A DNA stretch of 63,281 nucleotides, from positions 1-63,281 of the forward strand of contig NZ_JAMXHT010000012.1 of assembly GCF_023955655.1 (NCBI RefSeq), in the 5' to 3' direction. The notes under the pieces are model-generated. The model was not told where the DNA came from, did not search any database, and worked only from the letters and a program-made list of their open reading frames with translations. Position 1 is the stretch's first letter. Every line of letters starts with the position of its first letter. Both the position numbers and the translations under genes were made by a program. The stretch comes from Ralstonia soli (GTDB lineage Bacteria > Pseudomonadota > Gammaproteobacteria > Burkholderiales > Burkholderiaceae). This document shows, piece after piece, positions 1,692-5,645 of the stretch.

Positions 1692-2621
1692 TTACTCCGC
1701 GAACTTGTGCAAGTAGTACGGCGCGGCCCGATCTTCAAGAATCGCATCCATCGCGTCTAGGTTCTTCGAATCGGGATTTAGCCAAGCATCAATGTTCTCG
1801 GCTTTGATCGGCACGATGCATCGGTCGTGTCCAGCTTCCACAATTTCCGGTGGCGGGTCGTCCGTGATGGCTGCAAACGAGAGCAAGTCCTTCTGTCCGG
1901 GTTCGGTCCAGTGCGACCACAGGCATGCAACCAGCAGTGTTTGTGGCGGATCGGGCCGGAACTCCATCACCACGTTCGACCCGTCTTCGCGGGTGACGTT
2001 CTCATAGAAGGCATCAACCAGAATCAGGCCGTGGGTGTGGCCGTACTGTTCTTTCCAGAATCCACGCAGGTTGTCCCGCCGTGCGTTGTACGTGCCGGGA
2101 TACTTGGTGTCATAGAAGGCTGGCTTACCTGCTGGCCTGCATCCGTACCGCATTGGTTTGACCGTACGCCGACCGTTCTCCATCACCATTACCGGTGCGT
2201 ACCAGCCCGGATAGATGCGCGAATCACGCGGCTTCAGTTCGGTGCTGTTGAGGTCTTCCAGCTTGCCTTTGGCTGCTTCGATCTTGTTGGTTGCGATGCG
2301 CACATCTTCGGCAGCCTTCTTGGTCGCCTTTATTGCCAGCGCCTGTTTGGCCTTCTCCAATCGCTCCGTCTGCTTGGCGAGTTCTTGCAGAAGTTCGATT
2401 TCGTCGGCGGCCATCCGTGCACGCAGCACCTCGGCAATCTTTCGCTCCTCGTCCGTCTCCGGTGACACGAGGAACGGTGCCGTCATCGCCTTCGGGACAC
2501 GCATCTTGGGATTGCGGAAGTACTCCATGATCATCCGCGTGAAGTCATCCAGCGACATGATGGCGCCGTACTCCTTCACGAAGCGCCGGTAGTCGGCTTC
2601 AATACGGGCGGAGTAACACAT
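1692..2621 (-). CDS. SRAP (YedK/HMCES-type) DNA-protein crosslink enzyme, variant with helical insertion
   Basis: 309 residues. The family signature is present: Cys2 directly after Met1, an Asn in the TYNARRD motif (N179), a Glu in AFYE (E207) and a His in GHDRCIVPI (H265). These match the catalytic Cys, Asn, Glu and His of SRAP proteins, which cap abasic sites in single-stranded DNA through the N-terminal cysteine. YedK is about 220 residues. The extra length here is mainly a charged, probably coiled-coil stretch at about residues 55-125, rich in Lys, Glu and Ala. The N-terminus reads MCYSARIE rather than MCGRF. The gene lies 32 bp after the gene at 2654-3184, and the two follow a LexA box, so SOS induction is likely. 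The family call is firm; the role of the insertion is unknown. Confidence 0.88.
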   Translation of the reverse strand: MCYSARIEADYRRFVKEYGAIMSLDDFTRMIMEYFRNPKMRVPKAMTAPFLVSPETDEERKIAEVLRARMAADEIELLQELAKQTERLEKAKQALAIKATKKAAEDVRIATNKIEAAKGKLEDLNSTELKPRDSRIYPGWYAPVMVMENGRRTVKPMRYGCRPAGKPAFYDTKYPGTYNARRDNLRGFWKEQYGHTHGLILVDAFYENVTREDGSNVVMEFRPDPPQTLLVACLWSHWTEPGQKDLLSFAAITDDPPPEIVEAGHDRCIVPIKAENIDAWLNPDSKNLDAMDAILEDRAAPYYLHKFAE

Positions 2622-2653
2622 GGTGGTCCCCGAAGTGGTGCGGCCATGATAGA

Positions 2654-3184
2654 TCAGCGCCGTCTTCGGGCGGTGCGCTTCATGATCACCAGTTCTGCAC
2701 TAGTCCATTCCAGCGGCGCCGGGGATGGGTGGCTGGCGAGTGCCATGCGAAGCCCTGTGAAGCGCCTGTCAAACGGCGGTTCGATGTCGGCGCATTCGCA
2801 CCATTCAGCAACGTATCTGGCGTATTCAACAGTGCTTCGGAGATACCAAATCTCCCACATCAGACGCCGCACATCTTCACACTTGTTCCGTTCCCATATC
2901 GCACGAATTTCATCGACCGTGAGCCTGCTTGGTGGAGGCGGCGTGCTCTTCGGCGGGTTGCACTGAATCCCCGGCCCATGCATCGGATAGCCAGTGCCAC
3001 GATCTTCGCGCGTGCACTCCACCGGTTCCCATCGCTCGACCTTCAGATAAGGGTTCCAGTCACCGGCGAAGAACTTTGCGGCCTGATCGGCGCTCATGTG
3101 GTGCCGGGTCATTCTCCACTGACCGGTCTTGGCATCCAGATACCGGTACTTGTGGACGATGTGGGGTGGCGGGGGGGTTTCCAT
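2654..3184 (-). CDS. Uncharacterised protein, first gene of the LexA-box operon
   Basis: 176 residues. The N-terminus starts with a proline run and a segment HKYRYLDAKTGQWR, followed by HHMSADQAAKFF. The middle has a second proline run and an acidic/basic helix (VDEIRAIWERNKCEDVRRLMWEIWYLRSTVEYARYV region, residues about 95-125). The C-terminus ends in a KRTARRRR basic tail that could contact nucleic acid. I recognise no domain. The start codon lies only 8-9 nt from the edge of the LexA box, so this is the promoter-proximal gene of an operon with SRAP. Its position suggests a DNA-damage role, which is inference. Confidence 0.6.
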   Translation of the reverse strand: METPPPPHIVHKYRYLDAKTGQWRMTRHHMSADQAAKFFAGDWNPYLKVERWEPVECTREDRGTGYPMHGPGIQCNPPKSTPPPPSRLTVDEIRAIWERNKCEDVRRLMWEIWYLRSTVEYARYVAEWCECADIEPPFDRRFTGLRMALASHPSPAPLEWTSAELVIMKRTARRRR

Positions 3185-3192
3185 GATGCGCA

Positions 3193-3216
3193 GATACTGT
3201 ATGGATGTACAGTATC
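3193..3216 (-). promoter_or_regulatory. LexA box (SOS operator)
   Basis: CTGT at 3197-3200 and ACAG at 3209-3212 are separated by exactly 8 bp, which fits the gamma/beta-proteobacterial LexA consensus CTGT-N8-ACAG. The dyad extends outward to GATACTGT/ACAGTATC. It lies immediately upstream of the gene starting at 3184 and would repress the two-gene operon that includes the SRAP enzyme. Confidence 0.88.
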
Positions 3217-3297
3217 AGGCGACCCTCATGAGCGGTCAATCCGCGACAATGGAGACATGCCTTTGACACCACACCATGTCCCCAATTCCGTGCCGGA

Positions 3298-4026
3298 TCA
3301 AGCTTGCACGGGTGGCGGGACAAGCGGCAGACAGTCGGCGAAATCCACGTACAACTTGCGGATTGGATGCATGTTCTCTGGATCACCGGACAGTATCGAT
3401 ACCAACTGTGCCGTGATGGAAACCAGTGCGTTGGAGTTCCGCAGGGCGTCAGTTGCAAGCGGTGCTGGGTAGCCGGTAAGTGTTCTGGATAGCGGATGGA
3501 TGCCACCGTGCGTGTAACTGCACAGCGCCTTCCATGCCACTTCATGGAATTGCTTCAGTTGATCAACCAACTGTGGCTGCACCTTGCTGCTATCCAACTT
3601 CTTCAGCATTTCGGACAGAGAAGGCCCTTCGTTCGCCTGTCGGGCACTGTTCACGGTCAGCGGTTCACTAAGCTTGTCCACCCACTCTTCTGTGGCGCCA
3701 TAAAGCAACCAGATGCCACGGACGAGTGTTTCGAACTGAGGTCGCACCAAGGCAATGCCCGAAGCGAACAACCCGTTATCGATGAGAACCAGCGCACCCA
3801 TCGCGTGTTCCAGCGACAGTATCCCGGCTTGAAACGAAACAACGAATCGCTTTTCAGGGCAAGGAATGATGCGGTCCACGTGCGCTGCTACGGCTTCATG
3901 CAACTGCGCGGTGCGATCCAGTGTCGCGGATAGTTTTTCTTCTTCGGTCATCTCGGGATAAGGGTGCGGCCAGACCAACGGGTCAATGAGGAGGGCACCA
4001 GCGTACCCAATGTCCTTTTGTTGCAC
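3298..4026 (-). CDS. Uncharacterised island protein downstream of the integrase
   Basis: 242 residues, predominantly helical. A central region contains LRP/VRPQFETLVRGIWLLYGAT followed by SLSEMLKKLD, and later the motif CSYTHGGIHPLSR with two conserved-looking histidines. No signal peptide or transmembrane segment is seen. It begins 12 bp after the integrase stop and is probably co-transcribed with it. It faintly recalls uncharacterised DUF families of mobile elements, but I cannot name one with confidence. Confidence 0.6.
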   Translation of the reverse strand: MQQKDIGYAGALLIDPLVWPHPYPEMTEEEKLSATLDRTAQLHEAVAAHVDRIIPCPEKRFVVSFQAGILSLEHAMGALVLIDNGLFASGIALVRPQFETLVRGIWLLYGATEEWVDKLSEPLTVNSARQANEGPSLSEMLKKLDSSKVQPQLVDQLKQFHEVAWKALCSYTHGGIHPLSRTLTGYPAPLATDALRNSNALVSITAQLVSILSGDPENMHPIRKLYVDFADCLPLVPPPVQA

Positions 4027-4038
4027 ATGTCGGACCGC

Positions 4039-5022
4039 TTAGCCGATCTTCTTCGCCAGTTCAACGGCAGACGGGTGGTAGTACCGCTTCAGCATTGCCA
4101 AGTTGCGATGCCCTGATACCGCAGCAAGTTCAATGAGGTTGGGAAGCTTCGCCGCCAGTCGCGTGATCGCCGTATGACGCAGATCGTGCCAGTGCAAGTC
4201 CACCAGTCCGGCACGCTTGCATGCCCGCTTGAACGCCGCATGGTGCGCTGGTGCGTTGACAGGAAACACTCGACCATCAATGCACCGTGGCAGTTCTCGC
4301 AGCAGGTCCACGGCCTTCCGAGATAGCGGCACAGTTCGGGCAGTTCCGTTCTTGGTCATCGGAAGAAATGCGGTCTGATTTTCGAGATTGATGTTCGACC
4401 AGCGAAGTTGCAGCAATTCACCGCGTCGCATTGCCGTCTCAAGACTCAGAATCATCATCGGTCGAAGCCACGGACTACGACGACCGGTAGGTGCCAATGC
4501 CGCAAGCAGCCGATCTTCTTCATCGGCCAGCAGTAACCTGTCTCGGCCCTGTGGTGTCGGTGGTTTGCGAATCAGTGCGACGGGGTTGGTGATGTTGATG
4601 TCCCATTCGCGACGGGCATGGTTGATGATTGCCGATAGGTATGCCAAATCCCGGATCACCGTCGCAGGTTTTACCTGCTTCAGCCGTTCATCCCGGAAAG
4701 CCGCCAAGACCTTCGGCGTCAGTGCCGCCATGCTGAGTTTCGCCAGCGTGTTGCGGCAAGTGGCGCGAAGCCGAATTACTGCGTCAGTGCCGCCGCGCTG
4801 TGTGGGGCACACGTCAGTGATGTAACGGTCGATGATGTCTTCGAGCGTGTTGGCTTCGGCTTGGCTGCGGCTGACGAAGCTTCCGCGATCCATGTCCGCT
4901 TCCGCAGATCGCGCCCACTGTTCGGCTTCTTTGCGGGTGTTGAAGGTCTTTACTTCTGGTGGGAAGCCTTTACGCGTAATCCGGGCCTGCCACTTGTTTC
5001 CTCGATGTCTTATGGATGCCAT
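4039..5022 (-). CDS. int: Tyrosine recombinase (phage-type integrase)
   Basis: 327 residues with the full active-site set in order: Arg199 in AMRRGELL, Lys224 in TKNGTART, His279 and Arg282 in HDLRHT, His305 in SGHRN and Tyr314 in RYYHP. An N-terminal Arm-type DNA-binding segment (RHRGNKWQARITRKG) precedes a core-binding SAM-like domain at about residues 55-140. It is the outermost gene of the island, reads away from moaC, and probably mediated insertion there. The usual TG before the first catalytic Arg is TA here, which need not affect activity. No recombination directionality factor was recognised nearby. Confidence 0.9.
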   Translation of the reverse strand: MASIRHRGNKWQARITRKGFPPEVKTFNTRKEAEQWARSAEADMDRGSFVSRSQAEANTLEDIIDRYITDVCPTQRGGTDAVIRLRATCRNTLAKLSMAALTPKVLAAFRDERLKQVKPATVIRDLAYLSAIINHARREWDINITNPVALIRKPPTPQGRDRLLLADEEDRLLAALAPTGRRSPWLRPMMILSLETAMRRGELLQLRWSNINLENQTAFLPMTKNGTARTVPLSRKAVDLLRELPRCIDGRVFPVNAPAHHAAFKRACKRAGLVDLHWHDLRHTAITRLAAKLPNLIELAAVSGHRNLAMLKRYYHPSAVELAKKIG

Positions 5023-5159: not shown

Positions 5160-5645
5160 TTACTTAACGTTGCCAGCCACCCACTCACCAGACTTCCCCC
5201 CCCGCTTCTCCATCAACCGCACATCCCCGATCACCATCCCCCGATCCACGGCCTTGCACATATCGTAGATGGTGAGCAGCCCCACCTGCACCGCAGTCAG
5301 CGCTTCCATCTCCACCCCCGTCTGCCCATGCGTCTCCGCACGAACGGTACAGCGGATGGTGTGTGCAGCCTCATCCAGCGCAAATTCCACCGCCACCTTG
5401 GTCAACGCCAGCGGGTGACACAGCGGGATCAGATCCGACGTTCGCTTGGAACCCTGGATCGCCGCAATGCGTGCGATGCCGAGCACGTCGCCCTTCTTGG
5501 CGGTGCCGTCGCGCACCAGCGCAAACGTCTCGGGCAGCATGCGGATCGTGCCGGTGGCCACCGCCACGCGGTGCGTGACGGCCTTGTCGCCGACGTCGAC
5601 CATGTGGGCTTGTCCGGCGGAATCGAAATGGGTGAGTTGCGACAT
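5160..5645 (-). CDS. moaC: Cyclic pyranopterin monophosphate synthase MoaC
   Basis: 161 residues, the usual length. MoaC converts 3',8-cyclo-7,8-dihydro-GTP to cyclic pyranopterin monophosphate in molybdenum-cofactor synthesis. Catalytic residues known from the E. coli enzyme fall at identical positions here: Lys51 (TAKKGD), His77 (LCHPL), Asp128 and Lys131 ([11 protein letters not shown]). It is transcribed away from the divergent protease gene at 5751. Its 3' end abuts the genomic island. A second molybdenum-cofactor gene, mobB, lies at 22.4 kb. Confidence 0.97.

What the first reader, a model, noticed from the sequence alone, without database searches (positions are those of the whole stretch)
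1692..3216. LexA-controlled operon pairing an unknown basic-tailed protein with an atypical SRAP enzyme
Seen: a perfect CTGT-N8-ACAG box with extended dyad immediately before a 176-aa gene, then 32 bp later an SRAP gene with C2, N179, E207 and H265 in place. Known: SRAP proteins crosslink abasic sites and are linked to the SOS response. Inferred: the 176-aa protein, with its basic tail, is a partner in single-stranded DNA or crosslink repair carried by the mobile element. The SRAP has a charged helical insertion of roughly 70 residues not in YedK.
Basis: partly seen in the sequence, partly recalled or inferred. Interest (0 to 1): 0.72.

Follow-up and report, generated by a model that had tools for sequence, protein, structure and literature searches.

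The report
SOS-switched pair of DNA-repair genes
A predicted DNA-damage switch sits in front of two neighbouring genes, one for an enzyme of a family known to cap damaged DNA and one for an undescribed small protein that related mobile elements appear to exchange while keeping the switch and the enzyme.

Summary
A LexA operator with 9-bp arms (3193-3216) overlaps a sigma-70-type promoter 12 nt before a 176-aa gene; an SRAP gene follows 32 bp later with C2, N179, E207 and H265. The same box type precedes lexA in this Ralstonia-group genome. The 176-aa protein belongs to an unnamed family ("A domain") of small helical proteins of Burkholderiales, often preceded by a LexA box. In 16 genomes of the genus, 18 of 28 SRAP hits have an A gene directly upstream; in 50 genomes, 22 of 48 A hits lie within 2 kb of an SRAP hit (about 0.07 expected). 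The pairing is not obligatory: 8 A hits lie in 6 genomes without SRAP, and 73 of 80 viral loci with insert-type SRAP lack A. New: related elements keep promoter and SRAP (81-97% identical) but differ in the first gene (23-51% between classes; in one pair dS 0.21 in SRAP against 1.82 in A). This is shown among relatives, not for the more distant window copy. Four copies lie beside the portal gene of P2-like prophages. Best reading: a damage-induced abasic-site-capping cassette whose first gene is an exchangeable accessory. The "atypical" SRAP insert is ordinary for a large subfamily. The A protein's function is untested.

The parts
3211..3239 (-). sigma-70-type promoter: TTGACC, 17-nt spacer, GATACT (-10 overlaps the LexA operator)
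   Evidence: 9 of 12 matches; TTGAC conserved in 14 of 15 Ralstonia-type loci aligned on the box
3193..3216 (.). LexA operator, dyad GATACTGTA-N6-TACAGTATC
   Evidence: same box type before lexA of the same genome
2654..3184 (-). 176-aa gene of the unnamed A-domain family
   Evidence: third-position substitutions are the most frequent in each of five comparisons
3002..3160 (-). N-terminal beta-beta-alpha-beta domain of the 176-aa protein (residues 9-61), absent from most short relatives
   Evidence: AlphaFold2 model, mean pLDDT 79.9; alignments
2660..2917 (-). A domain proper: four predicted helices (residues 90-175), motif LTxxELRxIWxRNxxPxVRxLLWEIxRL, basic tail
1692..2621 (-). SRAP gene, MCYSA type, 309 aa, with C2, N179, E207, H265
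   Evidence: PF02586 E 3.2e-20; model matches YedK and HMCES structures; residue alignment
2247..2453 (-). helical hairpin insert of the SRAP (residues 57-125), with invariant Q84, R87, K98, T100, R108, K113
   Evidence: within residues 57-126, 29-41 substitutions at third codon positions against 9-15 at positions 1 and 2 together, in each of seven comparisons
3298..4026 (-). DUF6988 gene next to the cassette; matches a candidate anti-phage defence model
   Evidence: PF22491 E 4.5e-62; PADLOC PDC-S52 E 1.3e-74
4039..5022 (-). tyrosine integrase, between the cassette and moaC (5160-5645)
   Evidence: PF00589 E 2.2e-28 and MoaC E 6e-58; phrog_1 integrase E 7e-69

Best explanation
A LexA-repressed two-gene cassette on a mobile element. 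When ssDNA and RecA inactivate LexA, one promoter makes both proteins. The SRAP caps abasic sites in ssDNA through Cys2 (established for YedK and HMCES; inferred here from residues and fold), which protects gaps and stalled forks from breakage. The 176-aa protein is an exchangeable accessory that targets, licenses or releases the SRAP, or links it to the repair partner that the particular element or host uses. Shown here: conserved operator and promoter, operon layout, intact SRAP active site, recurrent linkage, and, among relatives, exchange of the first gene between conserved flanks. Inferred: damage induction, abasic-site chemistry, physical or functional contact between the two proteins.
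For: Operator and promoter. Of 54 first-in-row A genes examined, 33 have a strict box followed by an in-frame start codon within 120 nt, 28 of them within 3-17 nt; of ten others re-examined, four have a one-mismatch box, one of these 320 nt upstream. Linkage: 18 of 28 SRAP hits in 16 genus genomes; 22 of 48 A hits within 2 kb of an SRAP hit against about 0.07 expected, in three layouts: 16 co-directional with A first, 5 divergent, 1 convergent. The pairing occurs with three SRAP types: MCYSA with insert, MCTNY/MCNNY without, and canonical MCGR (one locus, L101). Active site; fold. Exchange of the first gene: L071 against L073 SRAP dS 0.21, A dS 1.82; L072 against L073 A dS 0.07, SRAP dS 0.36; L053 against L091 SRAP 96% identical, first gene(s) 27%. 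Four of eight insert-type plasmid SRAPs examined lie next to or near imuA, error-prone polymerase or ligD genes.
Against: 26 of 48 A hits are not within 2 kb of an SRAP hit, 8 of them in 6 genomes without any SRAP hit (of these 8 only one, in G105, has an E-value below 1e-6); two genomes of other families have A plus a strict box and no SRAP (G628, G571). Insert-type SRAP occurs without A: 73 of 80 viral loci have no A hit nearby (10 of the 80 have under 1.5 kb of upstream sequence), and in 9 the box starts 68-73 nt before SRAP. The exchange is not shown for the window copy itself, whose synonymous sites are near saturation against the relatives (SRAP dS 1.8-2.4). No complex could be modelled. 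No fold match for A.
Confidence: 0.45

Rival explanations
1. The A protein is an SOS effector in its own right (for example a regulator, cell-cycle brake or RecA/RNA-polymerase modulator) and is merely co-transcribed with SRAP in many elements.
For: A genes with a strict LexA box stand in two genomes of other families that have no SRAP hit, and 8 A hits lie in 6 further SRAP-less genomes; tandem A genes and other small proteins share the same promoter slot.
Against: Linkage with SRAP is far above chance and occurs in three orientations and with three SRAP types; the full-length 176-aa type was beside an SRAP or a truncated SRAP in 8 of 8 loci (window, L053-L056, L071-L073).
Confidence: 0.28
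2. The cassette is an SOS-triggered competition or anti-phage module: the SRAP and its exchangeable partner act on damaged or invading DNA, and the partner varies because the target varies.
For: Copies lie on the portal (gpQ) 3' side of P2-like prophages in four loci; in E. coli P2-like phages the cos-proximal region beside gpQ is an anti-phage hotspot (PMC9122126, passages); an Imm52 gene lies in the same stretch of one of them; the window copy is beside a PDC-S52 candidate defence gene; replacement of the first gene.
Against: Neither SRAP nor A matches any PADLOC model. The published hotspot lies between gpA and gpQ; in the G121 prophage an integrase lies about 2.3 kb to the left of the A gene with chromosomal-type genes beyond, and no gpA was recognised between (not every small ORF there was scanned). 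YedK was not needed for Brig1 immunity (PMC11078745, passage).
Confidence: 0.1
3. The A protein is a manager of translesion polymerases that replaces ImuA or another mutasome part beside SRAP.
For: Insert-type SRAPs on four of eight plasmids examined lie next to or near imuA, error-prone polymerase or ligD genes; SRAP is linked to UmuC, DinB and ImuA-ImuB-DnaE2 operons in print (PMC3765255, passages).
Against: No polymerase gene was seen between the cassette and the integrase or the contig end; A has no credible match to a family of known function; the genome has a separate polymerase-like IMS (ImuB-type) gene behind its own LexA box.
Confidence: 0.1
4. Neutral cargo: SRAP and A are hitch-hiking genes with no joint role.
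For: Several SRAP copies of the genus are short or split over two frames.
Against: Purifying selection on both genes including the insert, conserved promoter and operator.
Confidence: 0.05

Closest known systems
SRAP / YedK / HMCES (PF02586)
   Same: Cys2, Asn, Glu, His active site and SRAP fold; SOS-linked neighbourhood (PMC3765255; PMC9436759, passages)
   Different: N-terminal extension of about 100 residues with a helical hairpin; operon partner is a small unnamed protein, not a polymerase
SRAP-ImuA-ImuB-DnaE2 and SRAP-Ku/ligase neighbourhoods (PMC3765255)
   Same: SOS-type neighbourhood around SRAP; some insert-type plasmid relatives sit near such genes
   Different: No polymerase or ligase seen in the window cassette; variable A-domain gene in the first position
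phrog_32761 (phage proteins of unknown function)
   Same: 21 of 29 short A-domain proteins match it at E up to 0.1
   Different: The 176-aa protein has an extra N-terminal domain and matches only weakly (E 0.0068); PHROGs gives no function
P2-like phage cos-proximal hotspot (old/tin locus)
   Same: Location beside gpQ in L053, L072, L073 and the G113 locus
   Different: gpA not seen on the other side (in G121 an integrase lies there); no anti-phage test; the window copy itself is next to an integrase on a contig that ends before any portal gene
hypA/hypB, predicted LexA-regulated hypothetical genes of beta-proteobacteria (PMC3323433)
   Same: Predicted LexA-controlled hypothetical genes of the same bacterial group
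   Different: The passages read give no sequence; identity with the A family was not testable here

Membership tests
SRAP (PF02586) | Sequence match over the curated cut-off | tested here: met
   73 bits against 27.1
SRAP (PF02586) | Cys directly after the start Met, plus Asn, Glu, His of the active site | tested here: met
   C2, N179, E207, H265 align with canonical L101 SRAP; conserved in A4
SRAP (PF02586) | SRAP fold | tested here: met
   AlphaFold2 model (mean pLDDT 86.1) matches YedK and HMCES chains, E 5e-9 to 5e-7, TM by target 0.57-0.64
SRAP (PF02586) | Covalent capping of abasic sites | not testable with these tools
   needs biochemistry
LexA regulon | Palindromic CTGT-N8-ACAG operator overlapping the promoter | tested here: met
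LexA regulon | Same motif before lexA in the same genome | tested here: met
   two CTGT-N8-ACAG boxes directly before a gene with LexA_DNA_bind (E 2.1e-28) and Peptidase_S24 domains (L076)
LexA regulon | LexA binding and damage induction | not testable with these tools
   needs EMSA and expression data
Any named family for the 176-aa protein | Match to a curated Pfam or NCBIfam model | tested here: not met
   0 families at E up to 1 for the 176-aa protein; 29 short relatives against Pfam: only single-member matches, best E 0.008; the short relatives were not scanned against NCBIfam
P2-like anti-phage hotspot cargo | Location between gpA and gpQ of a P2-like phage | tested here: inconclusive
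   gpQ side seen in four loci; gpA not seen, in G121 an integrase lies on that side; the window contig shows neither
P2-like anti-phage hotspot cargo | Protection from phage | not testable with these tools
   needs plating tests

The most novel reading that the evidence does not exclude
SRAP has an unrecognised family of exchangeable partner proteins: prophages and islands of Burkholderiales keep one LexA promoter and one near-constant abasic-site-capping enzyme and swap the small helical protein between them, as competition systems swap specificity parts, so that damage-triggered or infection-triggered SRAP is aimed at different DNA or different replication machines in each element.
Probability: 0.2. 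Interest if true: 0.85.

Novelty: new variant of a known kind. Interest (0 to 1): 0.6.

Why it matters
SRAP proteins occur from bacteria to humans, but how they are aimed at the right abasic sites, and how the crosslink is resolved in bacteria, is to my knowledge open. A protein family that recurs beside SRAP behind a LexA box, in several layouts, and is exchanged between near-identical SRAPs gives a concrete, testable candidate for an SRAP accessory, and natural paired alleles with which to test it.

Tried and rejected

Sequence match of the SRAP to solved chains: none at E up to 0.001 by single sequence or profile; the fold search found them instead.

Membership of A in ImuA, UmuD or an anti-phage family was considered and dropped for lack of any match. 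The A protein in the annotated collections: no match of the 176-aa protein in plasmids or phages, nor of two short relatives in phages, although predicted viral contigs carry it. A moaC-side stretch of the window in plasmids: no match. An attachment-site duplicate of the integrase/moaC boundary: only the window copy itself was found in the genome. Eleven proteins near plasmid SRAPs, most of them small, were tested as A members: none.

Sampling limits: the loci behind searches were partly chosen after earlier hits, so their fractions describe the sample. Dropped before the count: L074, L075 (same places as L055, L056) and L095 (same protein as L069 in another genome; no strict box). In one search six hits that matched only the N-terminal domain were left out (two in G179, one in G125, two in G209, one in G197), and the hits in the 25 matching genomes not given to one search were not examined. 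The expected 0.07 is my own estimate from SRAP number and an assumed 6.5-Mb genome. In one search three of the seven A-bearing loci (L139-L141) are the same contigs as L071-L073, and one (L179) is a weak match in a 416-aa ORF. Counts may be low because only part of the candidates per genome was scored.

Literature: none of the papers listed by the searches was seen to describe this pairing; most lists were capped and only open-licence PMC papers are held. Papers were seen as follows: PMC3765255 outline, abstract and passages; PMC12926913, PMC11078745, PMC3323433, PMC9436759 and PMC9122126 passages; all others search listings only.

Full report
WHAT IS THERE. The window is a whole contig (C4) of a 5.73-Mb genome. 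Its genus is that of R. pickettii SSH4 and Ralstonia sp. UNC404CL21Col: two same-genus loci lie on contigs of the same lengths as the named contigs found. From the right: moaC (5160-5645), a tyrosine integrase (4039-5022), a DUF6988 gene (3298-4026; PADLOC candidate PDC-S52, E 1.3e-74), then the LexA operator, the 176-aa gene and the SRAP gene, all genes on the minus strand. The left side runs to the contig end, so the element is not seen whole.

THE SWITCH. The 16-bp core alone is not significant in a 63-kb window (0.66 expected). The 20-bp form occurs at two places in the genome; the other lies upstream of a gene with an IMS (ImuB-type) domain. An ORF between them resembles annotated ImuA by eye, but had no Pfam match. 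Two boxes directly precede lexA, which has its DNA-binding and peptidase domains. Aligned on the box, 14 of 15 Ralstonia-type loci show TTGAC at the -35 position, with the -10 overlapping the operator. The box ends 12 nt before the start codon in the window. Among 54 first-in-row A genes, 33 have a strict box followed by an in-frame start within 120 nt, 28 of them with a gap of 3-17 nt. With 35 strict sites in 5.73 Mb, such a position is expected by chance in about 1 of 10,000 genes (my arithmetic). Of ten further loci re-examined, four (L051, L058, L059, L060) have a one-mismatch box, in L060 320 nt upstream; six have none. In nine others the box is followed by another small ORF that precedes or overlaps A (L061, L062, L065-L067, L080, L082, L087, L088), two of them zinc-ribbon-like (sub-threshold Pfam matches only). 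So the operon form is box, variable small gene(s), often an A gene, often SRAP.

THE 176-AA PROTEIN. It has no Pfam or NCBIfam match. A profile of short relatives finds 221 proteins at E up to 1e-3; of the 120 listed, none has a Pfam domain and those with a name are called hypothetical or uncharacterised, from Burkholderiales where an organism is named more closely than Pseudomonadota. The predicted structure has an N-terminal beta-beta-alpha-beta domain (residues 9-61) and four helices (90-175), mean pLDDT 79.9. Most short relatives contain only the helical part. Third-position substitutions are the most frequent.

THE SRAP. It is a normal member with the complete active site. The charged hairpin (57-97, 101-125) is conserved in the 59-sequence alignment, with invariant Q84, R87, K98, T100, R108 and K113, and is under strong purifying selection. 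Such proteins are very common: 7111 hits among the 7999 scored, and the 120 listed all carry PF02586 and are mostly 307-320 aa long; 88 of 109 plasmid records with a match cover at least 80% of the query. The insert is therefore not an oddity of this element.

LINKAGE. In 16 genomes of the genus, one search found 28 SRAP hits; 18 have an A gene directly upstream on the same strand. Of the ten without, L124 has a LexA box and an unrelated 132-aa gene in that position; L118-L122 and L128 have SRAP ORFs of only 160-247 aa; in L126 and L127 the match is split over two frames; L117 is full length without a partner. In 50 genomes, 22 of 48 C-terminal-domain hits lie within 2 kb of an SRAP hit, against about 0.07 expected; 16 are co-directional with A first, 5 divergent, 1 convergent. 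In a sample of 399 genomes of the order, 10 had hits, the window genome included. In one genome of another family a canonical MCGR-type SRAP follows an A gene (L101). Against an obligatory pair: 26 of 48 A hits are unpaired by this measure (three of them, L054, L060 and L066, lie beside SRAP fragments), 8 of the 26 lie in 6 SRAP-less genomes, and 73 of 80 viral loci with insert-type SRAP, the best 80 of 227, have no A hit nearby.

EXCHANGE OF THE FIRST GENE. Among cassettes whose SRAPs are 81-97% identical, the first position holds one of three A forms: the window type (175-176 aa), a 174-aa type (48-51% identical to it), or two tandem short A genes (23-32% identical to the other two over the aligned part). 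Between L071 and L073 the SRAPs differ by dS 0.21, the A genes by dS 1.82. Between L072 and L073 the A genes differ by dS 0.07, the SRAPs by 0.36. Over L053, L055, L071 against L072, L073, L056, SRAP dS is 0.24-0.36 within A classes and 0.18-0.34 between them, while A dS is 0.07-0.42 within and at least 1.49 between. This points to replacement of the first gene by recombination rather than to fast evolution in place. L053 and L091 share an SRAP at 96% and a 120-nt promoter region at 68%, with first genes at 27%. The window copy is more distant (SRAP dS 1.8-2.4 to these), so for it the exchange is not shown.

SETTING. In L053, L072, L073 and the G113 locus the cassette lies on the 3' side of a P2-type portal gene (phrog_68), with the terminase gene beyond it where checked (L053, L072, G113). 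In E. coli P2-like phages the region between gpA and gpQ next to cos is a hotspot of anti-phage genes (PMC9122126, passages). Here gpA was not seen; in G121 an integrase lies about 2.3 kb left of the A gene, with chromosomal-type genes beyond. Membership of that hotspot is open. On plasmids, four of eight insert-type SRAPs examined lie next to or near imuA, error-prone polymerase or ligD genes.

READING. The evidence fits a damage-induced cassette in which SRAP is the constant enzyme and A is an exchangeable accessory. The chemistry of SRAP is known from YedK and HMCES (PMC9436759, passages); that it holds here is inference from residues and fold. What A does is not known; targeting, licensing or release of SRAP is my preferred inference at 0.45, an independent SOS role the main rival at 0.28.

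Noticed in passing
G000:C29:48860-48894 (L077 2061-2372): An 89-aa gene directly behind tandem LexA boxes, no Pfam match. The box TACTGTAAATATATACAG recurs in 15 of 16 genus genomes. It may be the predicted hypA of PMC3323433; not tested.
   Followed up: partly
window 3298-4026: DUF6988 gene beside the cassette matches candidate defence model PDC-S52.
   Followed up: partly
L124 3406-3804: A LexA box and an unrelated 132-aa gene take the place of the A gene upstream of an insert-type SRAP; no Pfam match.
   Followed up: partly
L061, L062, L067, L115: A family of 82-87-aa proteins follows the LexA box, before A genes in L061, L062 and L067 and before SRAP in L115; no Pfam match.
   Followed up: partly
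L065 3304-3549, L066 3419-3667: Small zinc-ribbon-like proteins between LexA box and A gene (Pfam matches below cut-off).
   Followed up: no
L143, L146-L153 upstream of SRAP: LexA box starting 68-73 nt before an insert-type SRAP in nine predicted viral contigs; only L152 also has A hits, farther upstream on the other strand.
   Followed up: no
L130 (Paraburkholderia fungorum plasmid): Insert-type SRAP between an error-prone DNA polymerase gene and BREX genes.
   Followed up: no
L221 537-1331: Imm52 immunity-protein gene between the cassette and the portal gene of the G113 prophage.
   Followed up: no
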